A DNA stretch of 44,555 nt from Aquisalinus sp. (lineage in GTDB: Bacteria; Pseudomonadota; Alphaproteobacteria; Caulobacterales; Parvularculaceae), in the NCBI GenBank assembly GCA_022763115.1, contig JALEGJ010000088.1:1-44555 (forward strand), given 5' to 3'. The translations under genes were made by a program, and so were the position numbers. The notes beneath the pieces are model-generated. The model was not told the origin of the DNA. It saw nothing but the letters and a program-made list of their open reading frames with translations, and did not search any database. This document shows, piece by piece, positions 5,822 through 40,763 of the stretch (positions within the stretch are counted from its first letter, which is position 1; the number at the start of each line of letters is the position of its first letter).

Positions 5822-7405
5822 ATGGACCAGTTAAGCGCACAGGACGCCCAGTTCCTGTATATGGAAGACTCTGATGTGGTGGCAAGTATCACTGCAGTTC
5901 AGATTTGTGATCAGTCTACGGCGCCGGGCGGTACAGTGCGTTTCAAGGATATCATCGCACGGATTGAGAGCCGTCTCTGCCACTCTCCGATCTACAATCG
6001 CCACCTGATGCGCGTACCCATGGAGCTGGATTTTCCTTACTGGGTCGAAGATCCGCATTTTGATATTGAAAACCATATTCGCCATGCGCGCTTGCCAGAG
6101 CCTGCAGACTGGCGCCAGTTCTGTATTCATGTGGCGCGGTATCATTCGCGCCCGCTGGATATGGGCCGTCCGCTCTGGGAAGCGTATGTTGTTGAGGGCC
6201 TTGATAATCTTGAGGGCGTGCCGAAAGGATCTTTTGCGCTGATCTTCAAACTGCATCATGCCGCTGTCGATGGCGCATCAGCAGCGCAATTTCTGGGGAC
6301 GCTGTGGGACGTAACTCCCGATGGGATTCCCGCCCTCCCGGTGGAGCCTGCAGTTGCAGGGCATGGCTCACACGCCCCCACCCTGCCCGGCACATTGATG
6401 CGCGCCGCCGTCAATAACGCGCGCTCCCCTGTGCGCATGACACAGGCCGTGATGCGAGCCAGTCCGCAAATATCCCGTGCACTGATCAATGCCGGGCGAT
6501 CACGCCTGCGCAAAAGCGGCGGTGTGCCGAAGACAGTTTTCAACGGCAAGGTCGGTCAGCAGAAGGTTTTTGATGCTGCAAAGTTCAAGCTGTCAGATAT
6601 CAAGATCATTCGCACAGCGTATCCGGAAGCCAAGGTCAACGACGTAGTGCTGGCCGTCTGCAGCGGCGGTGTGCGTCGCTACCTGCAAGCCAAAGATGCA
6701 CTGCCAAACGATTCACTGGTTACCACTGCGCCGATCAATACACGCGGCAATGGCGGTGCAGATGGTATCGAGGGGGGCGGTAACAACATCTCCGCCATGA
6801 CCGTGCCATTGCATACGAATATTGCGCACCCTGTTGAGCGCCTGAAAGCCATCGTGCTTTCCACGCGCAAGACAAAAGCCGCGAAGGAAGGCCTCGCTGC
6901 CCGCCTGATGACGGACCTGACCCAGCATGTGCCGGCAGCAACCATGGCGCTTGCCAGTCGTCTGGTCATCCAGAATTCGAATGCAGCACAGAACATCAGT
7001 AATTTGACGATATCGAATGTGCCCGGCCCGCAACTGCCGTTGTATTTCTGCGGTGCTAAACTAGTCACTGGCTATGGGCTCGCGCCTCTGGCGAACGGTA
7101 TGGGGCTGTTTATCTCAACCCCAAGCTATAATGGCGAGATCACATTCGGCGTGACATCTTCGCGCGAGATCATGCCTGATGTCGCGTTCTTCATTCAGTG
7201 TCTTGAGGAATCTTTTGATGAGTTGCTGGCAGCGGCCACGCGACGCCTCGATGTGACAACAGAAAAGGAAGACGCTGCATCTTCTGAAGCGAAGCCAAAA
7301 CGCCGCAGAACAAGAATTACCCGCGTTTCTGAAACCGGAAAGAGCGCTCACACGAAATCCGCACAGCGCAACAAAGCCAACGGGAAAGCACGCCCTTCAG
7401 CCTGA
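5822..7405 (+). CDS. Wax ester synthase/diacylglycerol acyltransferase (WS/DGAT)
   Basis: This encodes 527 residues. The catalytic HHxxxDG motif is at 145-151 (HHAAVDG), with the family's PLW motif about 25 residues before it and the VNDVVLAV block near residue 275. The N terminus (MDQLSAQDAQFLYMED) is typical. The enzyme joins acyl-CoA to fatty alcohol or diacylglycerol to make storage wax esters or triacylglycerol at the inner membrane. After about residue 475 comes a Lys/Arg/Ser-rich tail of some 50 residues that is not part of the usual ~460-residue core and may bind membrane or lipid droplet surfaces. It converges on a sulfotransferase gene with a 9-bp tail overlap. Confidence 0.93.
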   Translation: MDQLSAQDAQFLYMEDSDVVASITAVQICDQSTAPGGTVRFKDIIARIESRLCHSPIYNRHLMRVPMELDFPYWVEDPHFDIENHIRHARLPEPADWRQFCIHVARYHSRPLDMGRPLWEAYVVEGLDNLEGVPKGSFALIFKLHHAAVDGASAAQFLGTLWDVTPDGIPALPVEPAVAGHGSHAPTLPGTLMRAAVNNARSPVRMTQAVMRASPQISRALINAGRSRLRKSGGVPKTVFNGKVGQQKVFDAAKFKLSDIKIIRTAYPEAKVNDVVLAVCSGGVRRYLQAKDALPNDSLVTTAPINTRGNGGADGIEGGGNNISAMTVPLHTNIAHPVERLKAIVLSTRKTKAAKEGLAARLMTDLTQHVPAATMALASRLVIQNSNAAQNISNLTISNVPGPQLPLYFCGAKLVTGYGLAPLANGMGLFISTPSYNGEITFGVTSSREIMPDVAFFIQCLEESFDELLAAATRRLDVTTEKEDAASSEAKPKRRRTRITRVSETGKSAHTKSAQRNKANGKARPSA

Positions 7406-9793: not shown

Positions 9794-11689
9794 ATGTATA
9801 AAACACTCTCCATACTACTCGCCACGACCATGCTTACCGCTTGCGGGGGGACGCAAACGCAACCCACCAGCACTCCGGCTGAGCCGTCAGCCGTCACGGC
9901 TGCCGAAGTCACGGATGCTGCTGCGATTGACGCAGAAACAGCACGCCTGAACGCCTGGTTTGAGGAGAAATTTGAGGAGCAACTGGCCTTCAGCCCAATT
10001 CAGCAAACATTCCTCGGACGCAAAACAGACTACGACAAGATCGACCAGTTCTCGCGCGCCGCTGCCGATGAGCAACTTGCCTGGCAGCGCCAGAGCGTCG
10101 CCGACATGAAAGCAAATTTCGACTACGACCAATTGACGCCGGAAGCGCAGATTTCCTGGGACATCTGGGAATATCAGCTTGAACTGGCTGAAGCTGCCGT
10201 TCCGTTCCGTTATAATGCGTATATTTTCGAGCAGATGCAGTCAATTCACTCGTTCTTCCCGCAGTTGCTGATCACATTCCATAATGTCGAGACAGAGAGT
10301 GATATGGAAGCGTACATTTCCCGTATCAACGAGTCTGCGCGGGGCTTGCGTCAGCTTATTGTTCTGTCCAAGGAGAATGCTGAAAGGGGCGTTCGTCCGC
10401 CGCGTTTCTCTTTTGAATTCGTGATCGAGAAAGCTACCAAGATCATCTCCGGCGCGCCATTTGATGACGCTGACAAGGACAGCGATATCTGGGCTGATGT
10501 TAAATCCGAGCTGGACTCACTGGTGGAGCGCGAGGAAATCTCCCAGGAACGCGCTGACGAACTCGAAGCTCAGGCGCGCGCTGCCCTGACGAGCGACTGG
10601 CAGTCTGCCTATGAGGAGCTGATTGCCTGGCAAAAAGAAGACATTGTCAACACATCAGAAGAAGCACAAGGTGTCAGCGCCCTGCCTGATGGTATCGCTT
10701 ACTATAATGAACGCCTTGCCAATCAGACAACAACCACTCTGACCGCGGATGAAATTCATGAAATCGGCCTATCAGAGGTGGCGCGCCTGCGCGAGGAGAT
10801 GGTGGCAATCAAGGATGAGTTCGGCTTTGATGGTGATCTGCCCGCTTTCTTCAAGTTCCTGCGGGACAACAAGGATGATGAACGCCTTTATTTCCCGAAT
10901 ACGGATGAAGGTCGTCAGGGATATATCGATGACGCAACAGCTGCGATCGACAAAATCAAGGCCGTGCTGCCGGAATACTTCGGTATCCTGCCCAAAGCCG
11001 ATCTTGAGGTGCGCCGCGTGGAGCCTTTCCGCGAGCAGGATGGGGCTGCGCAGCACTATTTCCCTGGCACACCCGACGGTGCCCGCCCCGGCATCTATTA
11101 TGCTCACCTGTCTGACATGACAGCATTGCCGAAACGCGAACTCGAAGTGATCGCCTATCATGAAGGACTGCCGGGACATCACATGCAGATTTCGATTGCC
11201 CAGGAACTCGAGGACGTTCCAACCTTCCGCACACAGGCTGGCTTCACTGTTTATGTCGAGGGTTGGGCGCTTTACTCCGAATGGCTCGCCAAGCAGATGC
11301 CAGGCACTTATGAGGACTCACTGTCTGAATTTGGCCGTCTTGGATCTGAGATGTGGCGCGCGGTACGCCTTGTCGTAGACACCGGCCTTCATGCGAAAGG
11401 CTGGAGTGAAGAACAGGCCGTAGAGTACTTCTTGGCCAACACTGCAGCGCCGGAAGCACAGGCTGGTTCAGAAGTTCAACGCTACATCGTATTGCCGGGC
11501 CAGGCCACAAGCTACAAGATCGGTATGCTGAAAATTCAGGAACTGCGCCGCAATGCGGAAGCCGAGCTTGGTGAAGATTTCGATATTCGCGGTTTCCACG
11601 ATACCGTACTTGGTGGCGGGGCCATGCCACTGGTCATTCTGGAGCGCCGTGTCGAGCAATGGGTTGAAAGCGTCAAGGCTGCCAACTGA
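9794..11689 (+). CDS. DUF885 family lipoprotein, predicted metalloenzyme
   Basis: This encodes 631 residues. The signal peptide ends in lipobox LTAC (Cys17), so the product is an exported lipoprotein. The DUF885 hallmark HEGLPGHH is at 456-463, followed about 30 residues later by VYVEGWALYSEW, which supplies a Glu. Together these form a zinc site resembling that of M32-like peptidases. The long N-terminal helical region (about 45-380) is typical. Probably a periplasmic peptidase or amidase; the substrate is unknown. A run of Thr/Ala/Ser/Pro after the lipid anchor acts as a spacer. Confidence 0.9.
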   Translation: MYKTLSILLATTMLTACGGTQTQPTSTPAEPSAVTAAEVTDAAAIDAETARLNAWFEEKFEEQLAFSPIQQTFLGRKTDYDKIDQFSRAAADEQLAWQRQSVADMKANFDYDQLTPEAQISWDIWEYQLELAEAAVPFRYNAYIFEQMQSIHSFFPQLLITFHNVETESDMEAYISRINESARGLRQLIVLSKENAERGVRPPRFSFEFVIEKATKIISGAPFDDADKDSDIWADVKSELDSLVEREEISQERADELEAQARAALTSDWQSAYEELIAWQKEDIVNTSEEAQGVSALPDGIAYYNERLANQTTTTLTADEIHEIGLSEVARLREEMVAIKDEFGFDGDLPAFFKFLRDNKDDERLYFPNTDEGRQGYIDDATAAIDKIKAVLPEYFGILPKADLEVRRVEPFREQDGAAQHYFPGTPDGARPGIYYAHLSDMTALPKRELEVIAYHEGLPGHHMQISIAQELEDVPTFRTQAGFTVYVEGWALYSEWLAKQMPGTYEDSLSEFGRLGSEMWRAVRLVVDTGLHAKGWSEEQAVEYFLANTAAPEAQAGSEVQRYIVLPGQATSYKIGMLKIQELRRNAEAELGEDFDIRGFHDTVLGGGAMPLVILERRVEQWVESVKAAN

Positions 11690-14540: not shown

Positions 14541-14731
14541 TTACTACAGCTATCCGAAGCGTACCCGCCATGTCAAATACACAAATCTCCTGCTGACGTC
14601 AGGCTTTGGTGCCTGTCTTGCAGTTTATACGAGTGTGCGCCCCTGCACACAGCCTGTCAGTTTATTACGACAGCCACTTAACCTGCAGGCGGTATCGGGT
14701 TAGAACGAATGGATCAACATGGGGATGTCTG

Positions 14732-16633
14732 GTGATCGGTAAATCTGTATTTCTAAAAGGGCTTTGGGGTGTGACGCTGGGGGCTTCGTGCCTGCTCGGA
14801 AGCAATGTCGCCGCCCAATCTCCGCATATCTATGAGTTTCCACCACTGATTATCTCTCCTGACGAGGAAGTGCCCGGCCAGCCAACCTATCTGAACCCGG
14901 CCGTGCCGGCTGACGGTTATAATTACATCATTACCGAAGACGGCGTTTTCTCGACCCGTGACCCGATGGAATTGCGGGACCTGATCCCACCGGCGAAAAA
15001 TACCGGCAGCGGCTGGAAAATCTATAAAACCGAATGGGATGCAGATGATGAGCGCGGCTATCAGGCTTTTGTCACCAGCCTTGGCCGAACCAAATGTGCT
15101 TCCATAGATGAATGCCTGCGCCACCCTGCTAATCCGTACCGGGACCTTGAAGACGACACGATTTACCTCGGCGACTGCGCGGATATGGCCTATTTCCTGC
15201 GCGGTTATTATGCGTGGAAAAACGGCCTCCCCTGGTCTTATCAGGATGCCATGCGTACAGCTGACGGCGCACGCGAGGACACACGCTATTCCTCAAACGG
15301 AAATATCGTGGCGAGCCGACGCTCTGTTATCACGAGAAGCAATGGCAGCCCGGTCAATGCTCCTGGCCTGTTACGGCGCATTCGCGGCGAAGTCTCGACA
15401 GCCATGTTCCGGACACATCCTGTTACTGGCGCAGGTGATACTTTTGACGACTTTTATCCCGTCGCCATTGACCGGGAGCATGTGGTGCCGGGGGCCATCG
15501 TTTATGATGTCTACGGCCATGTGGGGCTGGTGTACGAAGTTGAGGAAGATGGCCGGGTGATGATCTTTTCATCCCACCCGGACTTCTCGATCTCCCGCAC
15601 CACCTATGGCGCCAACTTCCTGCGCACCGGCCCGGAGTTCGGCGGGGGCCTGAAAGCCTGGCGCCCGATCAGGCTGGTTGGGGCGCGCAAGGCTGAGGAT
15701 GGCTCTTACATTGGCGGGCGTATTGTTGGTACACCGAATGAGGAATTGCCCGGCTTCTCCATGGTCCAGTATGTCGGAAACGGGCCGGAGGACACCCGCA
15801 ACTGGGATATGGCAGAGTTCCGGCTGGAAAACCGTACCCTGAATTATTACGAATTTGTGCGCCGCAAACTGGCCGCCCCGGATTACGCCTTCGATCCGAT
15901 CAGGGAGTTACGCAACGCCATGACCGCGATCTGCGGGGACCTGAAGGCCCGTAAAGTGGCCGTTGATGCGGCTGTGCGCGAAGGCGTGCATCTGAAAGAT
16001 CCACCCGAGCGCCTGCCGGAGAATATCTACGGCACCTATGGCACGTGGGAGAGCTTCTCGACGCCATCGCGCGATGCGCGCCTGAAAACGGCCTTCCGCG
16101 AACTGCGCTGGCTGACTGAAGACCTCATCACCAAGCACCGCTATGGCCAGCCGGGTGTAGACTACGACGGGAACAACCTGACAGGTGATCTGCTCAATGC
16201 TTTTGACGATGAAAAAAAGCGCTGCCAGATCACCTATGAACGCATGGACCGGTCTACAGTTGTGCTGAACATGAACCACATCATGGACCGGCTGTTCGAC
16301 CTGTCATTTGACCCTTATCACTGTCCGGAGCGGCGCTGGGGCGCGAAGGGCTCGGAGCTGGCGACCTGTCAGGAAACGCCTGAAAAGGCCGCATGGTATG
16401 ACGCCCAGAAATATCTGCGCAATCAGGTTGAGCGCACTTACAGTGTACGTATGGATTTCAGTAAAGACGAACTGCAATCGCCCCTCATTGCCGACGTGAC
16501 AGAAGGCGGACTGGGTGCTGTTGCCCCGCCTGACATCCACATCAAGAAATACCTGATGAGCCAGATTGGCGTTCATCGCTCCGAGGAAGGCGAGCTGGGC
16601 AAGGGCGTCGCTGGCACTGAAAGCGCTAATTAG
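14732..16633 (+). CDS. Secreted protein with predicted papain/NlpC-like Cys-His site
   Basis: This encodes 633 residues from GTG 14732, the first start that gives a signal peptide: hydrophobic residues about 8-25, cleavage after AAQ near residue 27. The frame stays open upstream to 14606 but that part is unlikely to be coded. Residues about 140-290 hold LGDCADMAYFLRGYYAW (Cys149) and PGAIVYDVYGHVGLVYEV (His263). This order and spacing, with the His in a GHVG strand, matches CHAP, NlpC/P60 and transglutaminase-type hydrolases. The remaining 340 residues match nothing I recognise and contain several Cys. It may act in the periplasm on peptidoglycan or another amide; this is inferred. Confidence 0.75.
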   Translation: MIGKSVFLKGLWGVTLGASCLLGSNVAAQSPHIYEFPPLIISPDEEVPGQPTYLNPAVPADGYNYIITEDGVFSTRDPMELRDLIPPAKNTGSGWKIYKTEWDADDERGYQAFVTSLGRTKCASIDECLRHPANPYRDLEDDTIYLGDCADMAYFLRGYYAWKNGLPWSYQDAMRTADGAREDTRYSSNGNIVASRRSVITRSNGSPVNAPGLLRRIRGEVSTAMFRTHPVTGAGDTFDDFYPVAIDREHVVPGAIVYDVYGHVGLVYEVEEDGRVMIFSSHPDFSISRTTYGANFLRTGPEFGGGLKAWRPIRLVGARKAEDGSYIGGRIVGTPNEELPGFSMVQYVGNGPEDTRNWDMAEFRLENRTLNYYEFVRRKLAAPDYAFDPIRELRNAMTAICGDLKARKVAVDAAVREGVHLKDPPERLPENIYGTYGTWESFSTPSRDARLKTAFRELRWLTEDLITKHRYGQPGVDYDGNNLTGDLLNAFDDEKKRCQITYERMDRSTVVLNMNHIMDRLFDLSFDPYHCPERRWGAKGSELATCQETPEKAAWYDAQKYLRNQVERTYSVRMDFSKDELQSPLIADVTEGGLGAVAPPDIHIKKYLMSQIGVHRSEEGELGKGVAGTESAN

Positions 16634-31264: not shown

Positions 31265-31464
31265 GCACTAACTCATATTACCTGAGATCCAATCAGCCGT
31301 AAGAGTTAGCCCGGTATTCTGGCAACACAACCATAAGCTGTATCGCTTGCCCACTATACCCGCCTTACCAGAATTACTCCGTTAACCCCATTTCTCTGGA
31401 TTGTAGACTAAGCCATTGGTTTATGATTAGTTAACGCGTCTTGGGGACTATTTTGGGGTATGTC

Positions 31465-34400
31465 ATGGAGCATGGGGTCTCCGCACACATCAGTGCACCG
31501 TCTGGATCTGAAAATTTTCTGGTAGCAAAACTGCTGTCAGCACTAGTGATCAGCCTCTGGATGATAGCCAGCTTTTCCAGCTCAGCAAACGCACAGGGAC
31601 TCGCCAGCCCTTCCGCCGGTTGTACTGCTGCGAATAATGGTGACTTTGATAACTTTCCGGTTTTCGGACTTTCTGGGTTTACAGGTTCATTTACGAATGA
31701 CTTTGACGCGGGAGAAATCCTGACCTTCACTTATGACGGATTTTTCACTGCAGAGATTAACGATGACACAGCTCCAACTGTCATTGTTTCAGAAAGCAGT
31801 GCCACTTTCATCATGGATGACCCTCGGACAGCCAATTATACGATGCCTGTAGATGGTTCGCGCACCTTCTCAGCTCTATTTACAGGCGAACCAGAGATAA
31901 TTGTTACCTGCGAGCCAGTTCCTTCCAGCTCTCTAACCATCACAAAGGCTTCTGATGTGGCAGGAGCCTTTAATTTCACCAGCGACATTCCCGGCCTTGG
32001 CACTTTCACTCTGTCGCCTGCAGCTGGCTCCACTCACTCCACCTCGCAGGTAACCGGCCTCGCTGCTGGTACCTACACGGTAACCGAACTGACTAATGCT
32101 GATTTCAACATCAGCGACATCAGCTGTACCAACGGCGACACAGGCGATACTTCAACTGGTATATTGGAAATCAATCTTGATCCCGGTGCGGACGTAGAAT
32201 GCACCTTCACCAATACCCAGAAAACCGGCTCCATTACGATAACCAAAGCCTCTGATGTGGCAGGAGACTTTAATTTCACCAGCGACATACCGGGCCTTGG
32301 CACTTTCACTCTGTCGCCCGCAGCTGGCTCCACTGACTCCACCTCGCAGGTAACTGGCCTCGCTGCTGGTACCTACACGGTAACCGAACTGACTAACCCT
32401 GATTTTAATATCACGGACATCAGCTGTACCAACGGGGACACAGGCGATACCTCAACAGGTATACTGGAAATCAATCTCGATCCCGGTGCGGACGTAGAAT
32501 GCACCTTCACCAACACTCAGAAGACAGGTTCCGTTACAATACGAAAGACATCTGACGTTGATGGGACGTTCAACTTCGCTGGTGGCCTCAGCACTTTTGC
32601 CATAGATGTTGTCGGTGGCACAGGTCAGGAAGATTTCCCCGATTTGGCAGCGGGATCCTATACTGTCATTGAACTGCCTGACACTGATTTCACGCTTGAA
32701 GGCATCAGTTGCACAGGCGATGACGATGGGGGCTCTGTCATTGATACGCCTAACCGTACTGTGACGATTGATGTCGATCCGGGTGAAGCGATTATCTGTA
32801 CGTTTGAGAATCTGCAAAGCCCGGCTTCGCTTACCATTGTTAAGAATACAGATGTGGACGGCACGTTCAGTTTCAGCGGCACGGGCTCTATCGGCAACTT
32901 TGACCTGACGACAAGCGGCGGCACCAACTCTCGTACATTCCCTGACCTTGCTGCCGGTACGTATACGATTACTGAACTGGACAACTCCGATTTTGATCTC
33001 GCCCGTATTTCCTGCAGTGACAGCACCACCGGGGACATCACGACCGGATCAGTCACAATAACCCTGTCCCCGGCTGCAAGCCTGACCTGTACCTTCGAAA
33101 ATACCGAGAAAACCGGGTCAATTACGGTAGTGAAGACAACGGATGTAGACGGCACTTTTGATTTTACCGGCAGTGATCCCATCGGAAAATTCAGTATCTC
33201 AACATCATCCGGCTCTGCACAAGAAGTCTTCACAGACCTCTCCTCCGGAAGTTATACTTTGACTGAAACGCTGAATGCCGATTTCGATCTGGCCAGCATC
33301 TCCTGTGATGATGGTACGATTGGTGATACTTCTACCGGCTCTGTAACTGTCGCGCTCGGCGTTGGCGAAGATATTGTCTGTACTTTCGACAACACCCAGA
33401 AAACCGGTTCCATTACGATCACCAAAGCCTCGGATGTTGCGGGTGACTTTGACTTTAACAGCGATATTCCGGGTCTGGATACGTTCACCCTGTCCCCGGC
33501 GGCTGGCGCGACTGCCTCCACAGCTCCCGCAACTGGCCTTACCGCAGGCACTTACACGGTAACGGAGCTTTCCAACGCAGACTTCACCATCACGGATATC
33601 ACTTGTGACAATGGCGATACTGGCAACACTTCCACAGGCGTTCTTGAAATCAACCTCGGTATTGGCGCTGATGTCGAGTGTACGTTCACAAATGCAGAAT
33701 TACGCAGTTCCCTGACGATTACGAAGATATCTGATGTGAATGGTACATTTGGGTTTACCGGAGATCTTGGCGATTTCAATCTTATGCCCACGGCCTCACA
33801 GCCTGCCTCGATCTCCTTCAACAACCTCATCGCCGGAACATTTACCGTTGCCGAAACGCTGAATGCGGACTTCGACATTATCGACATCTCCTGCACGAAC
33901 GGAGACAGTGGCGATACCACCTCAGGTATCCTGTCGGTCACGCTCGACCCGGGTGCCAATGTCATCTGTACATTTACAAACCAGCAGCGGCCAGGCTCTA
34001 TTACCATCGTCAAGCAGATTGATAATGATGAGTCCGTCTTTAGGTTCGCATCAAACAACCTTGGCCAGTTTGCCATCCAGACGATCAACCAGACCGGCAG
34101 TGAGTCTTTCGCCGACCTTACCGCAGACAGCTATATCATAACGCAGGCTGTGAACGAGGATTATGCCCTCGTCAGCATCAACTGTGTTGGTGATATCGAT
34201 AATGGTAGCAGCACAAGCCTTGAGAACCGCCGCGCAACCATTGACCTTGATCCAAACGAGGAAATTATCTGCACCTTCATTAGTGAAGATTTGGTAGATG
34301 AAGATCGTGTACGGCATATGAGCATGAAGGCGACGAAAGGGTTCGCCTATCGTCGCGCCCGGAACATGCTGAATGCCGAACCGGACCGGACGAATTTTTA

Positions 34401-35847
34401 CCGCCGTAATCCTGAAGTTCTCTGGGAAGATAATGACAGCGTCTCCGCGCAAAACCGTAAACCTGTGCGTTACGCCATGAATGCCAATGGCGGGAATGTT
34501 CAGTTTGACTTTGAAGCAGCAACAGAGCGCTCGGATATGATTACCCCGGAAAAAGGCCTGCAATTATGGGTCGAGGGGCATTACACGAAAGCGGATGATG
34601 GCGTTGCCGGGTTTGGCACGCAGCTGGATATCGATAGCGAGTACGGCATTGTTCATTTGGGAGCTGACTTCCATGTGAATGACAATCTTATCCTCGGAGC
34701 GCTGGTCAGTTTTGACCGCGCCAGTGACGAAATAGATTTCTTCGATGATGAAACGCAGGAGCGCCTGTTCCAGGAAGTCGATGGCACCGGCTGGATGGCC
34801 GGTCCTTACCTGTCGGCCCGCTTATCCAAGAACCTCTTCCTGAATGCACGCGCTGCCTTCGGCTCTTCAACCAATAACCTAACCATCGAAAACCTGGTGC
34901 AGGATGATGAGTTTGAAACAGACAGAACGCTCGGCCGCATTGCGCTGACCGGCAACAAGGTCTTCCAGGAAAACTGGCGGATTACGCCAACGCTTTCCGT
35001 CTCCTATTTCCGCGAAAGCATCAATGATTACATAAGCAATACCGGCGTTGCCATTCCATCACAGACACTGGAACTGGGTCGTGCAGAATTCGAGCCTGAG
35101 CTTGCGTACCGACATGCGTTCCCGGACGGGACAACCATTGAGCCACAATTCTCTGTCGCAGCGATCTGGGACTTTGAGGCGCCGGATGATATTGCCTTCT
35201 CCAACATCCCCGTACCAAATGAAGATGTACGTGCACGCTTTGAAAGTGCAGTCCAGCTAAACTGGGCTAATGGCAACTCGGCCAGGTTTGCCGCTTCCTA
35301 TGACGGTTTTGGCGCACAGGATTACAGCGCCTATGCTGTTGAGGCTTGGGTCGATATTCCACTTGGCCGTCCGATGCGCCGCGGCCAACCTGTCGCGGCG
35401 ACGCCGCAGCCTTATGTAGAACCTGTACAGTATAAAGAGTGTCCAGACGGCAGCCATGTCGAAATGCTGGATGACTGTCCCGTTGTCCTGATTGACATGC
35501 CGCCACCGGAGCCTGTCGAGTTCATCATCTATTTTGATTTCGACAAGTCCAATATCCTGCCGGAAGAGATGGCCAAGATTGATGATGCTGTCGCCCGCAC
35601 TCAAGGCCGGAGCATCAATATCGTCATCCTTGAGGGCAATACAGACCGGGCAGGCAGCAACGCCTATAATGATGCCCTCTCTGTGCGCCGTGCCGTTTCT
35701 GTGAGGAAGGCTCTGGTGGCGCGTGGTATCCCGGAAGAGCTGATTACCTACGACGCCTTCGGCGAAGAAAACCCGGCGGTCCAAACCAGAGATGGTGTGC
35801 CTCTGCGGGACAACCGTCGCACCGAGGTGCGGATCCGCTTCAACTAG
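31465..35847 (+). CDS. Repeat/beta-barrel/OmpA fusion surface protein
   Basis: This encodes 1460 residues from ATG 31465, preceded by GGGG 7 nt upstream; a TTG at 31441 would add eight residues. The signal peptide ends in SANAQ (near residue 44). Residues about 156-940 are eight tandem repeats of 96-100 residues, each with a Thr-Lys start and two conserved Cys, resembling prealbumin-like or SpaA-type folds. Residues about 1030-1305 are a predicted outer-membrane beta-barrel of autotransporter type with alternating aromatic strands. A short Pro-rich linker follows. Residues about 1350-1460 are an OmpA-C domain: YFDFDKSNI, NTDRAGSNAYNDALSVRRA and DNRRTEVRIRF. The repeats would project from the cell surface, the barrel anchor in the outer membrane, and OmpA-C hold peptidoglycan. 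Confidence 0.85.
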   Translation: MEHGVSAHISAPSGSENFLVAKLLSALVISLWMIASFSSSANAQGLASPSAGCTAANNGDFDNFPVFGLSGFTGSFTNDFDAGEILTFTYDGFFTAEINDDTAPTVIVSESSATFIMDDPRTANYTMPVDGSRTFSALFTGEPEIIVTCEPVPSSSLTITKASDVAGAFNFTSDIPGLGTFTLSPAAGSTHSTSQVTGLAAGTYTVTELTNADFNISDISCTNGDTGDTSTGILEINLDPGADVECTFTNTQKTGSITITKASDVAGDFNFTSDIPGLGTFTLSPAAGSTDSTSQVTGLAAGTYTVTELTNPDFNITDISCTNGDTGDTSTGILEINLDPGADVECTFTNTQKTGSVTIRKTSDVDGTFNFAGGLSTFAIDVVGGTGQEDFPDLAAGSYTVIELPDTDFTLEGISCTGDDDGGSVIDTPNRTVTIDVDPGEAIICTFENLQSPASLTIVKNTDVDGTFSFSGTGSIGNFDLTTSGGTNSRTFPDLAAGTYTITELDNSDFDLARISCSDSTTGDITTGSVTITLSPAASLTCTFENTEKTGSITVVKTTDVDGTFDFTGSDPIGKFSISTSSGSAQEVFTDLSSGSYTLTETLNADFDLASISCDDGTIGDTSTGSVTVALGVGEDIVCTFDNTQKTGSITITKASDVAGDFDFNSDIPGLDTFTLSPAAGATASTAPATGLTAGTYTVTELSNADFTITDITCDNGDTGNTSTGVLEINLGIGADVECTFTNAELRSSLTITKISDVNGTFGFTGDLGDFNLMPTASQPASISFNNLIAGTFTVAETLNADFDIIDISCTNGDSGDTTSGILSVTLDPGANVICTFTNQQRPGSITIVKQIDNDESVFRFASNNLGQFAIQTINQTGSESFADLTADSYIITQAVNEDYALVSINCVGDIDNGSSTSLENRRATIDLDPNEEIICTFISEDLVDEDRVRHMSMKATKGFAYRRARNMLNAEPDRTNFYRRNPEVLWEDNDSVSAQNRKPVRYAMNANGGNVQFDFEAATERSDMITPEKGLQLWVEGHYTKADDGVAGFGTQLDIDSEYGIVHLGADFHVNDNLILGALVSFDRASDEIDFFDDETQERLFQEVDGTGWMAGPYLSARLSKNLFLNARAAFGSSTNNLTIENLVQDDEFETDRTLGRIALTGNKVFQENWRITPTLSVSYFRESINDYISNTGVAIPSQTLELGRAEFEPELAYRHAFPDGTTIEPQFSVAAIWDFEAPDDIAFSNIPVPNEDVRARFESAVQLNWANGNSARFAASYDGFGAQDYSAYAVEAWVDIPLGRPMRRGQPVAATPQPYVEPVQYKECPDGSHVEMLDDCPVVLIDMPPPEPVEFIIYFDFDKSNILPEEMAKIDDAVARTQGRSINIVILEGNTDRAGSNAYNDALSVRRAVSVRKALVARGIPEELITYDAFGEENPAVQTRDGVPLRDNRRTEVRIRFN
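31930..34284 (+). repeat. Eight tandem ~300-bp coding repeats
   Basis: Units start at about 31930, 32230, 32530, 32827, 33118, 33409, 33709 and 33997. Each encodes about 96-100 residues beginning SxTIxK and ending with a CTFxN-type strand. Units 1 and 2 are near-identical at the DNA level, unit 6 is the next closest, and the others have diverged widely. All eight keep two Cys. This is a growth-by-duplication array in frame with the surface protein. Confidence 0.9.
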
Positions 35848-35908
35848 CGGCGTATCCCCAGTTAGACATACGCTTTAGTATTATAACGGTTTGCTCTATC
35901 AGGGCGGA

Positions 35909-36922
35909 ATGCAAATTGATGTCCCATCTCCTGCTGGCCATCTTGTCATTGGCCTCAATGCCGTGCTGGCCGCTGTTGAGGGCGATCATCCGCTCGTGCT
36001 CTGTGCCCGTGCAGATGATGGTTTATGGGGGTTGCCATATGGGCCTTTTGATCCGGAGAGCCACCGCACCTTCGAATTGGGTTTGCGGGCCTTTGTGACC
36101 GAGCAGACGCGAATGCGGCTGGGGTATGTGGAGCAACTCTACACCTTTGGTGACAAGGGGCGCGAGGCCCCGAGCGCTGTCCTGCGTGGCGGCAGCACGG
36201 CGGACCGTGTGGTCTCGGTCGGATACCTCGCGCTGGCGCCGGGGGCCAATCCGATTGAACTCGAGGCGACCGCGTGGCGAAACTGGTACGATCATTTCCC
36301 CTGGGAAGACTGGCGCAAGGGAGAGCCATCGATCCTTTCTGCACAGATTATCCCGGCTTTGCGAGACTGGATTGAAAGCGCTGAAGATGCGCCCTTGCAA
36401 CGCCAGCGACGCGACAGGGTGCGCCTTGCCTTCGGCTTTGAAACATCCGGCTGGGAAGAAGAGCGCACACTGGACCGCTACGAACTGCTCTATGAAGCAG
36501 GGATTGTGGCAGAGGCCGCGCGTGATGGTCAGATTGAGGGTACCCCGCTTCAGGTTGCTGATGCTGCCATGAGTTCTGACCACCGGCGCATTCTGGCAAC
36601 AGCTATCGGTCGCCTGCGCGGGAAGCTGCGTTATCGCCCGATCATCTTCGAAATGATGCCGGCCAGTTTCACCCTGCTGGATCTGCAACGCAGTGTGGAG
36701 GCGATTATCGGCTTCCCGTTGCACAAGCAGAATTTTCGGCGCGGCATCGATAATTCGGGCCTCGTCCACAAGACCGGCAATATGAGCGCCGAAACCGGTG
36801 GCAGACCTGCCGCCCTGTTCACGTTTGATCGCAGCCGGACCAGTGGCAAGGCGGCACAGGATCGCACCATCAAAGGCCTGACATTGCCCAGACTGCGGCT
36901 GTCGCCAACTGAAAAATTGTAG
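35909..36922 (+). CDS. nadQ: Nudix-derived NAD biosynthesis regulator (NadQ/NrtR-like)
   Basis: This encodes 337 residues from ATG 35909 (AGGGCGG upstream); TTG 35891 has no ribosome binding site. The N-terminal half (about 5-150) is a Nudix fold whose box is degraded: at PYGPFDPESHRTFELGLRAF and beyond, the acidic residues of REUXEE are missing, so it should not hydrolyse substrate. The C-terminal half (about 200-330) is winged-helix-like, with ILATAIGRLRGKLRYRPI and the FTLLDLQRSVEAIIG block shared with NrtR. Known proteins of this type bind NAD-related ligands and control NAD genes. It is upstream of nadABC in the same orientation, with a palindrome on the nadA promoter. Confidence 0.82.
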   Translation: MQIDVPSPAGHLVIGLNAVLAAVEGDHPLVLCARADDGLWGLPYGPFDPESHRTFELGLRAFVTEQTRMRLGYVEQLYTFGDKGREAPSAVLRGGSTADRVVSVGYLALAPGANPIELEATAWRNWYDHFPWEDWRKGEPSILSAQIIPALRDWIESAEDAPLQRQRRDRVRLAFGFETSGWEEERTLDRYELLYEAGIVAEAARDGQIEGTPLQVADAAMSSDHRRILATAIGRLRGKLRYRPIIFEMMPASFTLLDLQRSVEAIIGFPLHKQNFRRGIDNSGLVHKTGNMSAETGGRPAALFTFDRSRTSGKAAQDRTIKGLTLPRLRLSPTEKL

Positions 36923-37005
36923 CAATCACCCCCTAAAATATTGATATTATTATATTATTGATTTCTTGACTTACGATTTTCCGAAGCTATTTTCTCACCT
37001 TGCCC

Positions 37006-37034
37006 TTGATGGGCTGTTTTTTGGTTCCTATATA
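37006..37034 (+). promoter_or_regulatory. Predicted nadA promoter
   Basis: TTGATG (37006-37011) and TATATA (37029-37034) are exactly 17 bp apart, close to the consensus. The start of transcription would lie near 37041, inside the palindrome that follows. Confidence 0.55.
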
Positions 37035-37050
37035 TGCTCTAGTTGAGCAT
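37034..37050. promoter_or_regulatory. Palindromic operator, probable NadQ site
   Basis: ATGCTC-TAGTT-GAGCAT is a perfect 6-5-6 inverted repeat. It overlaps the end of the -10 element and the expected start of transcription, so a bound dimer would block nadA. The adjacent regulator gene makes NadQ the natural candidate. The motif itself is seen directly; the partner is inferred. Confidence 0.6.
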
Positions 37051-37117
37051 TAATAATAATCCTCGCATCCGAGGCGTATTCCGGATGCTCAGAACACTAA
37101 AGGGAATGGAGGCGCAC

Positions 37118-38221
37118 ATGCCTGCTTTTGGGAATGAAATCGATCTGGACCACCTGCCCTACACGGCAGACGTCAAAGAAAAAACAGACCATCTGTATCC
37201 GCTGGTGGCGAAGCTGATCCCACAACTCGAATGGGAACAACACGCGCCCTACATCGCCGCGATCAATGATCTGAAGGCTGAGTTGAACGCCGTCATTCTG
37301 GCGCACAACTACATGACGCCGGAAATTTTCGCCTGTGTCGGCGATTTTCAGGGCGACAGCCTGATGCTTGCCAAGGAAGCGGCCAAGACAGATGCAGAGA
37401 TCATCGTCCAGGCAGGTGTGCATTTCATGGCCGAGACCTCAAAAATCCTGAGCCCGGAGAAAACGGTCCTGATCCCTGATCTGGAAGCTGGCTGTTCCCT
37501 TGCATCTTCCATCACCGGCACTGACATCCGCCTGCTGAAGGAAAAATATCCCGGCATTCCGGTTGTCACTTACGTGAACACCACAGCGGATGTGAAAGCG
37601 GAAACAGATATCTGCTGCACTTCATCAAACGCCGTAGAGGTTGTGGAAGCCATCGCCGAGGAATGGGGTGTCGATACGGTCATGCTGCTGCCGGACCAGT
37701 ATCTGGCGAAAAACGTCGCAGCGATGACGGACATCAAGATCATCACCTGGGCCGGGGCCTGCGAGGTACACGAACGGTTCACGGCAGAGGATATCCGCGA
37801 AATCCGCGCCGGTAACCCTGATGTTATCGTGCTTGCACACCCGGAATGTCCGCCTGATGTTCTGGCAGAGGCAGATTACGCCGGTTCAACCAGCGGCATG
37901 AGCGGCTATGTAAAGGATAACCAGCCGCGCAATGTTGTGCTGATTACAGAGTGTTCCATGTCCGACAATGTTGCCATGGAAAATCCGAATGTGAATTTCG
38001 TCCGCCCTTGTAACCTCTGCCCGCATATGAAGCGCATTACGCTACCAGGTATCCTGAAAGCCCTGCAGAATATGGAACATCAGGTTGAGGTTGCACCGGA
38101 AATTGCGGAAAAAGCAAAACGCGCCGTACAGCGCATGATCGACCTGCCAATGAAGAAAGGTCAGTCCACATACATGCATGTGGGCAAGCCGGAAGTTATG
38201 GCTGTTGAGTCAAGAGTTTAG
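37118..38221 (+). CDS. nadA: Quinolinate synthase A
   Basis: This encodes 367 residues from ATG 37118, which has GGAGG 5 nt upstream; upstream in-frame starts to 37043 lie in the operator region. The [4Fe-4S] ligands are Cys126 (LEAGCSL), Cys215 ([11 protein letters not shown]) and one of Cys298/Cys301 (CNLCPHMKR). It condenses iminoaspartate from NadB with dihydroxyacetone phosphate to quinolinate. The enzyme is oxygen-sensitive. First gene of the nadABC set; a strong terminator separates it from nadB. Confidence 0.96.
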
Positions 38222-38255
38222 GGTCATTGGTTTCTCCTGAGTCGATGACAACACT

Positions 38256-38291
38256 GGTGCCGTCAGGACTGATCCTGACGGCACCTTTTTT
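38256..38291 (+). terminator. Intrinsic terminator between nadA and nadB
   Basis: GGTGCCGTCAGGA (38256-38268) pairs perfectly over 13 bp with TCCTGACGGCACC (38273-38285), loop CTGA, followed by six T. The T-run ends only 9 bp before the nadB start, so either nadBC has a promoter further upstream that must read through, or this is an attenuator. TCCTGA at 38235-38240 could pair with TCAGGA at 38263-38268 as a weak alternative structure. Confidence 0.9.
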
Positions 38292-38300
38292 CCCCGGAAA

Positions 38301-39902
38301 ATGATGTCCGCCCTGCCCGCCACAGATGATTTGCCAGATGACAGCATCCTGATTGTTGGCGCCGGGATTGCCGGACTGTTCACGGCGCTGAAACTGGCCC
38401 CGCGCCCTGTGACGATCCTGACAGCTGCCCCGCTCGGTAAAGGCGGCTCTTCTACCTGGGCGCAAGGCGGCCTTGCCGCAGCCATGGGGCCGGGTGATTC
38501 ACCACAGCTGCATTTGCGTGATACAGTGGCCGCCGGAGCCGGGCTCGTTGATGGACCTGCCGCAGATATTCTGACCAAAGAGGGTGCGGCTCGTGTTGAG
38601 GATTTAATAAAGCTGGGCATTGAATTTGATACGGATGCGCATGGACGCCTGAAACTGGGGCGTGAGGCAGCTCATAGCTGTGACCGCATCGTCCACGCTT
38701 CCGGCGACCAGGCAGGTGCTGCGATCATGGCGGGGTTGACCCGGGCAGCCCAGAGCGCCGAGCACATTACCATCCGTGAGCGGATTGTTATTGAAGAGCT
38801 CCTGCGTGACGAAGCCGGACATATCGCCGGTGTGCTGGCAGTTGATATTGTCAAGGGTACGCGCCTGATGATTACAGCCCGCGAAACAGTCCTCGCCACA
38901 GGCGGTCTTGGCGGGCTTTATGCGGTCACCACGAACCCGGTGCGCGCGCAAGGGCACGGCATGTCCATGGCGTGGCTCGCCGGGGCAGAAATCATGGACG
39001 CCGAATTTGTCCAGTTTCACCCGACAGCTCTTGATGTGGGCGTGGACCCTGCTCCCCTTGCCACAGAGGCCTTGCGCGGCGAAGGCGCGCTGCTTGTCAC
39101 AAGAGACGGCGGGCGACTGATGACAGGGTTGCATGAAGACATGGAGCTGGCACCACGCGACATCGTTGCGCGGGGCGTTGCCGCATCGATTGGTGCCGGT
39201 GATGGTGCCTTTCTGGATGCCCGCGCAGCGGTCGGCACAAGGTTCGAGGACATGTTCCCGACTGTTTACGACGCCTGCCGAAAGGCTGGCATTGACCCGG
39301 TGTCAGAGCCGATCCCTGTGGCGCCCGCCGCGCATTATCACATGGGCGGGGTGCGCACTGGCCTCAACGGAGAAAGCAGTCTGCCGGGGCTTTGGGCTGT
39401 GGGTGAAGTCGCCTGCACGGGCATTCACGGCGCCAACAGGCTGGCCTCCAACTCGCTGCTTGAAGCGCTGGTCTTTGGCGCCCGGACGGCAGCAGCCATC
39501 ACAGACGGCGATGGCGAGACACGTACTGTCGATGTCAGCCAGCTGATGCAAAGGCTCACCTTGCCTACAAAACCGGCACCTGACGCGCTCGCAAAGTCAC
39601 TGCGCGCGAAGATGGCCGCACAGGCGGGGCTGCTTCGCGATGACAGGGGCCTGACAGACCTGCTGGGTGACATTGATCGAGACTTCGCGCAACCGGATAT
39701 CACAAGTGGCAATTTCAATATGCTGATCGCAGCAAAACTTATCGCAGCCAGCGCGAAAAACCGGCAGGAAAGTCGCGGCGCGCATATGCGTGCTGATTAT
39801 CCAGCGCACTCAGCCACACCGACGCACAGCATTCTCAACCGCTCTAACGCCGGGCTTGATATTGAGATATCGTCCCGATCCGTACAAACCTCTTCGGAGT
39901 AG
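38301..39902 (+). CDS. nadB: L-aspartate oxidase
   Basis: This encodes 533 residues. The FAD-binding Rossmann motif is LIVGAGIAGLFTALKL (about 17-32). STWAQGGLAAA, the flavin-domain signature, and the HPTAL and RGEGALL substrate segments are all present. The C-terminal AVGEVACTGIHGANRLASNSLLE block is typical. It oxidises aspartate to iminoaspartate for NadA. ATG 38301 is followed by a second ATG; only a weak GGAAA precedes it, right after the terminator, which fits attenuated expression. Confidence 0.96.
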   Translation: MMSALPATDDLPDDSILIVGAGIAGLFTALKLAPRPVTILTAAPLGKGGSSTWAQGGLAAAMGPGDSPQLHLRDTVAAGAGLVDGPAADILTKEGAARVEDLIKLGIEFDTDAHGRLKLGREAAHSCDRIVHASGDQAGAAIMAGLTRAAQSAEHITIRERIVIEELLRDEAGHIAGVLAVDIVKGTRLMITARETVLATGGLGGLYAVTTNPVRAQGHGMSMAWLAGAEIMDAEFVQFHPTALDVGVDPAPLATEALRGEGALLVTRDGGRLMTGLHEDMELAPRDIVARGVAASIGAGDGAFLDARAAVGTRFEDMFPTVYDACRKAGIDPVSEPIPVAPAAHYHMGGVRTGLNGESSLPGLWAVGEVACTGIHGANRLASNSLLEALVFGARTAAAITDGDGETRTVDVSQLMQRLTLPTKPAPDALAKSLRAKMAAQAGLLRDDRGLTDLLGDIDRDFAQPDITSGNFNMLIAAKLIAASAKNRQESRGAHMRADYPAHSATPTHSILNRSNAGLDIEISSRSVQTSSE

Positions 39903-39908
39903 AATGAC

Positions 39909-40763
39909 ATGACCAGAGATCTCCCCTTGTCACATAGCCTGATCGAGGCGCGCGTACAGGCCGCCCTTGACGAAGACCTTGGCGATGCCGGTGACATTAC
40001 GACACGCGCGACCATTCCCGCTGAGACGCAGGGCAAGGCGATGATCCGGGCCAGAAAACCCGGTAGCCTTGCCGGCATCGAACTGGCTGAGACTGCCTTC
40101 AGGCTCGTATCTCCAGACGTAGATTTGAAGCGCCATTGTGCGGACGGCACGAGGCTGTCAGCAGGTAACGATATACTGGAAATCTCGGGGCCGGCTCGCG
40201 CCATCCTGAGCGCGGAGCGCGTTGCCCTGAACTTTCTCGGCCATCTGTCGGGTATCGCCACAGCAACTGCCGCCCTGGTTAATGCTGTTGATGGAACTGA
40301 CGTAAAGATTGTCTGCACACGCAAGACTCTACCCGGCCTTCGCGCCCTGCAAAAATATGCCGTCATTTGTGGTGGCGGCTTCAATCACCGCTTTGGCCTT
40401 TATGATGCGGTGATGATTAAGGATAATCACATCGCGGCCTGTGGCAGTATCACCGAGGCATTGCGCGCAGCCAGAGCGCGGCTCGGGCACATGGTCAAAG
40501 TTGAAATTGAAGTAGATACCATCGCCCAGCTTGAAGAAGTGCTGCGCGAGGGCGCAGATGTGATCCTTCTGGATAATATGACAACGGATCAGTTGCGCGA
40601 GGCTGTCAAATTGACAAAAGGCCGCGCCATTCTTGAAGCCTCAGGTAACATCACACTCGAAACTGTACGCCATGTCGCAGAAACAGGCGTGGACGTCATA
40701 TCATCCGGATGGATCACGCATTCAGCCCCTAATCTCGATCTTGGCCTAGATTATATCAGCTGA
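39909..40763 (+). CDS. nadC: Quinolinate phosphoribosyltransferase
   Basis: This encodes 284 residues. Signature blocks are ALDEDLGDAGDITTRA, CTRKTLPGLRALQKYAV, GGGFNHRFGLYDAVMIKDNHI and EASGNI. It converts quinolinate and PRPP to nicotinate mononucleotide. GGAG overlaps the nadB stop, and ATG 39909 is 6 bp downstream, so nadB and nadC are one transcript. The convergent SleB-type gene follows. Confidence 0.96.
   Translation: MTRDLPLSHSLIEARVQAALDEDLGDAGDITTRATIPAETQGKAMIRARKPGSLAGIELAETAFRLVSPDVDLKRHCADGTRLSAGNDILEISGPARAILSAERVALNFLGHLSGIATATAALVNAVDGTDVKIVCTRKTLPGLRALQKYAVICGGGFNHRFGLYDAVMIKDNHIAACGSITEALRAARARLGHMVKVEIEVDTIAQLEEVLREGADVILLDNMTTDQLREAVKLTKGRAILEASGNITLETVRHVAETGVDVISSGWITHSAPNLDLGLDYIS

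What the first reader, a model, noticed from the sequence alone, without database searches (positions are those of the whole stretch)
31465..35847. Giant surface protein: tandem repeats, beta-barrel and OmpA domain in one chain
Eight ~100-residue repeats precede an autotransporter-like barrel, followed by an OmpA-type peptidoglycan-binding domain. This order suggests a self-displaying adhesin or stalk clamped to the cell wall from inside. The barrel lying between passenger and periplasmic domain differs from classical autotransporters, where the barrel is last.
Basis: partly seen in the sequence, partly recalled or inferred. Interest (0 to 1): 0.7.

Follow-up and report, generated by a model that had tools for sequence, protein, structure and literature searches.

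The report
Wall-tethered self-exporting surface stalk protein
An alphaproteobacterium encodes one long protein that appears to push its own stalk of eight self-locking beads through the outer membrane and, unlike ordinary proteins of this kind, grips the cell wall from inside with an extra tail; the parts are all known, but this combination in one chain is unusual and easy to test.

Summary
Confirmed. ORF 31465-35847 (+; TTG at 31441 possible) encodes signal peptide, a ~110-aa N-terminal beta domain, eight SpaA_4 (CnaB-like) repeats, a pore helix, a 12-strand autotransporter barrel, a two-Cys linker and an OmpA domain with the peptidoglycan-binding Asp/Arg pair. The barrel model matches Hbp/EspP/NalP translocators (Z ~27-28), so the repeats should be outside and the OmpA domain inside. 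Repeats 1-7 carry the Lys-Glu-Asn triad of intramolecular isopeptide domains, and all 20 cysteines fall in pairs; the membrane-proximal repeat lacks Glu and Asn. Orthologues keep the order with 7, 2 or 1 repeats. The tail most likely derives from the resident OmpA porin lineage; separate autotransporter+OmpA fusions occur in at least two other alphaproteobacterial families. Barrel-last relatives are common. Precedents exist: trimeric autotransporters with C-terminal SLH or OmpA domains (PMC7549365), AtaA-TpgA (PMC13082670, PMC8151025), an Acinetobacter isopeptide-stalk adhesin with an OmpA anchor (PMC12617251). Verdict: real; new variant of a known kind; adhesin function inferred, not shown.

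The parts
31465..31596 (+). Signal peptide with a long n-region (ATG start; TTG at 31441 is an alternative)
   Evidence: Hydrophobic core and an ANA-Q cleavage-like end, by inspection; sequence after the ATG conserved in G001 and G005. No signal-peptide predictor was available.
31597..31926 (+). N-terminal beta-sandwich domain ('head'), one Cys pair (C61, C157)
   Evidence: Conserved in orthologues (A3), modelled with pLDDT ~73-94; found in 6 of 62 family genomes, always in this protein, and in three other class genomes on autotransporters with other stalks or none. No Pfam match.
31927..32226 (+). SpaA_4 repeat 1 (K169, E216, N258; C229/C254)
   Evidence: CnaB-like fold
32227..32526 (+). SpaA_4 repeat 2 (K269, E316, N358; C329/C354); 90% DNA identity to repeat 1, a recent duplication
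32527..32823 (+). SpaA_4 repeat 3 (K369, E411, N457; C424/C453)
32824..33114 (+). SpaA_4 repeat 4 (K468, E512, N554; C525/C550)
33115..33405 (+). SpaA_4 repeat 5 (K565, E609, N651; C622/C647)
33406..33705 (+). SpaA_4 repeat 6 (K662, E709, N751; C722/C747)
33706..33993 (+). SpaA_4 repeat 7 (K762, E805, N847; C818/C843)
33994..34284 (+). SpaA_4 repeat 8, membrane-proximal; triad broken (K858 kept, Glu->Q902, Asn->S948), Cys pair kept (C915/C944)
   Evidence: same substitutions in the orthologue G005
34300..34374 (+). Helix predicted to run through the barrel pore
   Evidence: AlphaFold2 helix, model residues 6-30, pLDDT ~74-91; aligned with the helix-containing translocators Hbp/EspP/NalP
34558..35358 (+). 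12-strand autotransporter beta-barrel
   Evidence: PF03797 1.6e-17; 12 strands; Hbp Z 28.2, EspP Z 27.8, NalP Z 27.6; no Cys
35437..35481 (+). Two-cysteine linker ECPDGSHVEMLDDCP (C1334/C1346)
   Evidence: Cys pair conserved in all aligned fusions incl. the degenerate ones and present in resident OmpA porins
35515..35844 (+). OmpA-type periplasmic domain; D1402 and R1417 correspond in motif and spacing to the peptidoglycan-binding Asp/Arg pair
   Evidence: PF00691 1.5e-15; aligned to solved OmpA and Pal domains; residues

Best explanation
It is a type Va-like autotransporter whose barrel is followed by a peptidoglycan-binding OmpA domain. The chain is exported by Sec, the barrel is inserted by BAM, the N-terminal part is passed outward along the pore, the helix stays in the pore, and the repeats fold outside into a stiff stalk of eight CnaB-like beads that carries the N-terminal domain at its tip. 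Seven beads have the residues to form a Lys-Asn isopeptide bond, and each bead has a cysteine pair; the bead next to the membrane cannot form the isopeptide bond. Inside, the OmpA domain holds peptidoglycan without covalent linkage, so that a pull on the stalk is passed to the cell wall and not only to the membrane. Shown by computation: domain order, fold of barrel and repeats, conserved residues, varying repeat number. Inferred: surface exposure, bond formation, peptidoglycan binding and a role in adhesion.
For: Pfam domains; 12-strand barrel with pore helix, Z ~27-28 to Hbp/EspP/NalP; repeats modelled at pLDDT mostly above 90 and matching isopeptide pilins and an adhesin with disulfide and isopeptide bonds; SpaA_4 is one of the families predicted to form isopeptide bonds with Lys-Glu-Asn, often together with disulfides (PMC12617251); triad present in 7 of 8 repeats and all 20 Cys in pairs; Asp/Arg pair of the OmpA domain (PMC6572160); conserved order in orthologues with 7, 2 and 1 repeats; same neighbours in the same genus; OmpA tail groups next to the resident OmpA porins of the family (89/90).
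Against: The OmpA part of the model has lower confidence than the barrel (pLDDT blocks of ten about 42-84). 18 passenger cysteines with 25-29 residue spacing in the repeats are unusual for an autotransporter, in which cysteines are generally few and close together (PMC8151025), so export of oxidised repeats is not obvious. Two relatives keep the linker but have a decayed OmpA domain (L046, L047), so the tether is dispensable in some lineages. No ligand-binding domain is recognised, so 'adhesin' is inference. Lys-Asn distances in the model were not measured.
Confidence: 0.78

Rival explanations
1. FapF-like arrangement: the helix plugs the barrel and the N-terminal repeats stay in the periplasm, so the protein is a periplasmic scaffold or tether and not a surface stalk.
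For: FapF barrels also match the model, Z ~17.5; [quoted passage not shown]
Against: True autotransporter translocators score about 10 Z units higher and align through the helix. Eight beads of roughly 4 nm (general knowledge of CnaB domains) would make a rod of about 30 nm, longer than the space between outer membrane and wall. The barrel-last relatives carry typical surface stalk domains in the same position (DUF7933, Big_12).
Confidence: 0.08
2. Mainly a structural outer membrane-to-peptidoglycan linker (an enlarged OmpA) whose repeats are a protective surface coat, not an adhesin.
For: The C-terminal module is most likely derived from the OmpA porin lineage of the same family; no recognised adhesive domain; repeats acidic (108 D/E to 22 K/R); stalk length varies between relatives.
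Against: An OmpA protein of the resident type is also present in this genome (C133), so another linker is not needed; found in only 7 of 62 family genomes; a conserved N-terminal domain is kept on different stalks.
Confidence: 0.2
3. The OmpA tail is a passive leftover of a gene fusion without a tethering role.
For: It has decayed in L046 and L047 and is absent from the related G167.
Against: In five genomes the Asp/Arg motif and the whole domain are intact and over Pfam's cut-off where scanned, and such fusions have arisen at least three times, which suggests selection.
Confidence: 0.12

Closest known systems
Classical (type Va) autotransporters, e.g. Hbp, EspP, NalP, AIDA-I
   Same: 12-strand barrel with a helix in front of it, N-terminal passenger
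   Different: The barrel is followed by ~160 residues with an OmpA domain; passenger is a row of CnaB-like beads instead of the usual beta-helix; 18 passenger cysteines
Trimeric autotransporters with an extra C-terminal SLH, coiled-coil or OmpA domain (Veillonella, other Negativicutes; OmpA in Streptobacillus moniliformis; PMC7549365)
   Same: Peptidoglycan-binding domain after the autotransporter barrel in the same chain
   Different: Those are type Vc (YadA anchor, barrel built from three chains); here one chain makes the whole 12-strand barrel
AtaA with TpgA, Acinetobacter (PMC8151025, PMC13082670)
   Same: An autotransporter adhesin made fast to peptidoglycan from the periplasm
   Different: There the anchor is a separate protein; here it is part of the chain
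Fibrillar adhesin B9T28_05395 of Acinetobacter silvestris (PMC12617251)
   Same: N-terminal domain, tandem isopeptide-type stalk, OmpA-like anchor in one chain
   Different: Stalk of CLIPPER (DUF11, CnaA-like) and cadherin-like domains; no autotransporter barrel is described in the passages read
Henriciella, Maricaulis and Oceanicaulis barrel-last relatives (L048, L051-L057)
   Same: Homologous pore helix and barrel, stalk of Ig-like or isopeptide-type domains
   Different: No OmpA domain; the chain ends within ~50 residues of the barrel
OmpA-type protein of the same genome (C133, ORF of 460 aa)
   Same: Same kind of two-cysteine linker and OmpA domain, 42% identity over 1287-1467
   Different: A smaller N-terminal part instead of stalk and autotransporter barrel (its barrel type was not tested here)

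Membership tests
Classical type Va autotransporter | 12-strand translocator barrel in one chain | tested here: met
   12 long strands; Hbp Z 28.2, rmsd 2.4, 269 aligned; PF03797
Classical type Va autotransporter | Helix preceding the barrel and lying in the pore | tested here: met
   helix 954-978, aligned range starts at model residue 2-12 in Hbp/EspP/NalP
Classical type Va autotransporter | Barrel is the C-terminal end of the chain | tested here: not met
   ~160 residues follow the last strand, with an OmpA domain; hence a variant and not a classical member
Classical type Va autotransporter | Passenger displayed outside the cell | not testable with these tools
   inferred from topology only
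CnaB-like intramolecular isopeptide domain (SpaA_4, PF24514) | Sequence family and fold | tested here: met
   8 stretches, E 5.7e-83; CnaB pilins and adhesins are the top structural matches, Z ~9-11.5
CnaB-like intramolecular isopeptide domain (SpaA_4, PF24514) | Lys (first strand), Glu (E-box), Asn (last strand) | tested here: met
   7 of 8 repeats; repeat 8 lacks Glu and Asn
CnaB-like intramolecular isopeptide domain (SpaA_4, PF24514) | Lys-Asn bond actually formed | not testable with these tools
   needs mass spectrometry or an experimental structure
OmpA-type peptidoglycan-binding domain (PF00691) | Sequence family over the curated cut-off | tested here: met
   57.8 bits against cut-off 27.2
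OmpA-type peptidoglycan-binding domain (PF00691) | Asp and Arg that bind diaminopimelate (D271/R286 of A. baumannii OmpA) | tested here: met
   TDR.GS.AYN..LS.RRA motif shared with solved OmpA domains; D1402 and R1417, 15 apart as in D271/R286 (PMC6572160). Binding itself not tested.
Trimeric autotransporter with C-terminal peptidoglycan-binding domain (type Vc) | YadA-type anchor with four strands per chain | tested here: not met
   12 strands in one chain, PF03797 and no YadA-anchor family in the Pfam table
Inverse autotransporter (intimin/invasin, type Ve) | Periplasmic domain and barrel N-terminal to the passenger | tested here: not met
   order is passenger, barrel, OmpA
FapF-like transporter | 12-strand barrel plugged by a helix, N-terminus on the periplasmic side | tested here: inconclusive
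   Z 17.5 against ~28 for autotransporters; orientation of the N-terminus not measured

The most novel reading that the evidence does not exclude
A complete load-bearing line in one chain: a stalk locked by isopeptide and disulfide bonds, a barrel, and a wall clamp. The bead next to the membrane has lost its lock because it must stay soft to start secretion or to act as a spring, and the wall clamp tends to be kept where the stalk is long (intact OmpA with 8, 7, 2 and 1 repeats; decayed with 1; absent with 0), so that some Gram-negative bacteria have repeatedly turned autotransporters into wall-anchored adhesins like those of Gram-positive bacteria.
Probability: 0.25. Interest if true: 0.65.

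Novelty: new variant of a known kind. Interest (0 to 1): 0.47.

Why it matters
If right, one polypeptide does what AtaA and TpgA do together, and it offers a clean test of two open points: whether a peptidoglycan clamp raises the force an autotransporter adhesin can bear, and how passengers with many cysteines and self-locking domains pass the outer membrane. Such fusions have been made at least three times in Alphaproteobacteria, so this is a repeated solution and not an accident. It also gives natural controls: relatives with 0, 1, 2, 7 and 8 beads, with intact, decayed or absent wall domains.

Tried and rejected
Fusion artefact or frameshift: rejected, the frame is intact and the order recurs in other genomes. 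OmpA domain as a separate downstream gene: rejected, no stop between barrel and OmpA in any orthologue read. The only such protein: rejected, other autotransporter+OmpA proteins exist in families f17 and f19. A single origin of all fusions: trees of the OmpA domain that hold pairs of the three groups together are rejected, p-AU 0.014, 9e-5 and 5e-6, although the groups were named after the first tree was seen. A second SpaA_4 protein in the family's genomes: none, all SpaA_4 matches lie in this protein. Name of the N-terminal domain: no Pfam match; only weak beta-sandwich matches (GOLD and macroglobulin-like domains, Z ~7), not above the level of common arrangements. Literature searches for a type Va barrel followed by OmpA gave no direct report; most subscription papers are not held, so this does not show absence. 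Promoter and terminator scans found no more than shuffled sequence; no Rfam match in the window.
Full report
Residue numbers below count from the TTG at 31441 (protein P0001, 1468 aa); subtract 8 for the ATG at 31465, which is the more likely start because the sequence from there on is conserved in the closest relatives.

Observation. The frame is open from 31441 to 35847. Pfam finds SpaA_4 eight times (5.7e-83 for the whole protein), an Autotransporter domain at 1043-1288 (1.6e-17, nearly the full length of the model) and an OmpA domain at 1364-1453 (1.5e-15), all over the curated cut-offs. The repeats start at 163, 263, 363, 462, 559, 656, 756 and 852 and are 96-100 residues long. Only repeats 1 and 2 are near-copies in DNA (90%; also the only array that Tandem Repeats Finder reports); the others are 57-73% alike, and five repeats (3, 4, 6, 7, 8) have a counterpart at 74-77% in the orthologue of genome G005, so most of the array is older than that species split and repeats 1 and 2 are a recent duplication.

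Barrel. AlphaFold2 on 949-1468 with eight sequences gives a helix (954-978), then twelve long strands (1040-1306), then the linker and an alpha/beta domain (mean pLDDT 72.4, most of the barrel above 80, OmpA part 42-84). Foldseek's top matches are autotransporter translocators (EstA, BrkA, Hbp, NalP, EspP, AIDA-I), and VIA-align gives Hbp Z 28.2 over 269 residues at 2.4 A, EspP 27.8, NalP 27.6, with the pore helix included. An even number of strands and a helix in the pore put the passenger outside and the C-terminus in the periplasm; this last step is established knowledge of type Va autotransporters, not a measurement on this protein.

Repeats. The model of the N-terminal domain plus repeats 1 and 2 has mean pLDDT 91.6. 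The repeats match CnaB-type pilins and adhesins, first of all a Mobiluncus adhesin with disulfide, isopeptide and ester bonds (5u5o, Z 11.5) and, by Foldseek, the TIE protein and streptococcal pilins. SpaA_4 is listed as a predicted isopeptide family with Lys, Glu and Asn, often together with disulfides (PMC12617251). Repeats 1-7 all have that triad; repeat 8 keeps Lys but has Gln and Ser for Glu and Asn, as does the last repeat of the G005 orthologue. In other relatives the membrane-proximal repeat is K/E/S (G003), S/Q/N (G017) or complete (L046, L047). The 20 cysteines of the protein all fall into pairs: one in the N-terminal domain, one in each repeat (25 or 29 apart) and one in the linker; the barrel has none. 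The pairing is an inference from position. Eighteen passenger cysteines equal the highest number quoted for chlamydial Pmp proteins in a review that describes these systems as generally poor in cysteine (PMC8151025).

OmpA domain. It aligns with solved OmpA and Pal domains, and D1402 and R1417 have the motif and the 15-residue spacing of the A. baumannii pair D271/R286 that binds diaminopimelate (PMC6572160). The two-cysteine linker also occurs in the OmpA-type protein of the same genome and in that of G018. In a tree of 82 OmpA domains the fused Parvularculaceae domains form one clade (100/98) next to the resident OmpA proteins of the family (89/90); the tree rests on only 113 columns. The likely history is that linker and domain came from a resident OmpA gene; this is inference.

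Relatives. The closest named record is an Aquisalinus MAG (98% identity in the barrel). In the window's family the fusion with intact OmpA domain occurs in five genomes (G000, G001, G003, G005, G017) and with a decayed OmpA domain in two (G052, G065, which appear to be the records of L046 and L047). SpaA_4 occurs in exactly these seven of 62 genomes and always in this protein. Repeat numbers are 8 (window), 7 (G005), 2 (G003) and 1 (G017, L046, L047); the G001 copy is split over contigs. In the same genus the gene sits between a KAS III-like gene upstream and a NrtR-like gene followed by nadA downstream; in G017 it sits elsewhere. G003 has a second protein with another passenger and a distant barrel but an OmpA domain of the same clade. 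G167 has the N-terminal domain and barrel with no repeats and no OmpA domain. Two proteins in each of two genomes of family f14 match the N-terminal domain; the two read carry it on a stalk that looks like a coiled coil, with a barrel and no OmpA domain seen. Henriciella, Maricaulis, Oceanicaulis and others have the barrel last, some with DUF7933 stalks, also an isopeptide family (PMC12617251).

How often. Independent fusions of an autotransporter barrel with an OmpA domain were met in family f17 (1510 and 2066 aa, with a proline-rich linker; Pfam) and family f19 (919 and 972 aa frames). Trees that hold the Parvularculaceae domains together with those of f17 or f19, or f17 with f19, fit worse (p-AU 0.014, 9e-5, 5e-6). 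In f19 a TonB-dependent-receptor-like protein also carries such a domain. These were met while searching for relatives of two queries; a proper census was not made.

Mechanism. Most likely: Sec export, insertion by BAM, passage of the N-terminal part to the outside, folding of the beads outside into a stalk with the N-terminal domain at the tip, isopeptide bonds forming on folding in seven beads, and non-covalent hold on peptidoglycan inside. The order of disulfide formation and passage is unknown. A link between stalk length and wall clamp is suggested by the few relatives (intact OmpA with 8, 7, 2 and 1 repeats, decayed with 1, absent with 0) but long-stalked barrel-last relatives in Henriciella speak against a general rule.

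Novelty. Each part is known. Peptidoglycan-binding domains after an autotransporter barrel are on record for trimeric autotransporters (PMC7549365), a separate partner protein, TpgA, links AtaA to peptidoglycan (PMC8151025; PMC13082670), and an Acinetobacter adhesin combines an isopeptide stalk with an OmpA-like anchor (PMC12617251). What I did not find described is a one-chain type Va barrel with this order, its repeated origin in Alphaproteobacteria, and the unlocked membrane-proximal bead. I therefore call it a new variant of a known kind.

Noticed in passing
L035 2124-5336 (G003): A second autotransporter with a different passenger and a distant barrel carries the same kind of Cys-linker and OmpA tail; its OmpA domain groups with that of G017, which suggests that the tail moves between autotransporters.
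   Followed up: partly
L046 7000-7383 and L047 6970-7338: The OmpA domain after the barrel is decayed: the Asp of the peptidoglycan motif is lost in both and the FGE/NRR region is missing, while the two-cysteine linker is kept.
   Followed up: partly
L137 (G400:C224): A TonB-dependent-receptor-like protein with an OmpA domain at its C-terminus; its OmpA domain groups with the autotransporter fusions of the same family.
   Followed up: no
[quoted passage not shown]
   Followed up: partly
window 35891-40763: NrtR-like regulator followed by nadA and genes that look like nadB and nadC: an NAD synthesis cluster directly downstream, ordinary (nadA/B/C by inspection).
   Followed up: partly
window 14606-16633: 675-aa open frame (TTG start) without any Pfam match at 1e-5; not examined further.
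   Followed up: no
window 5822-7405 and 9794-11689: A wax ester synthase/diacylglycerol acyltransferase gene and a DUF885 gene; ordinary.
   Followed up: no
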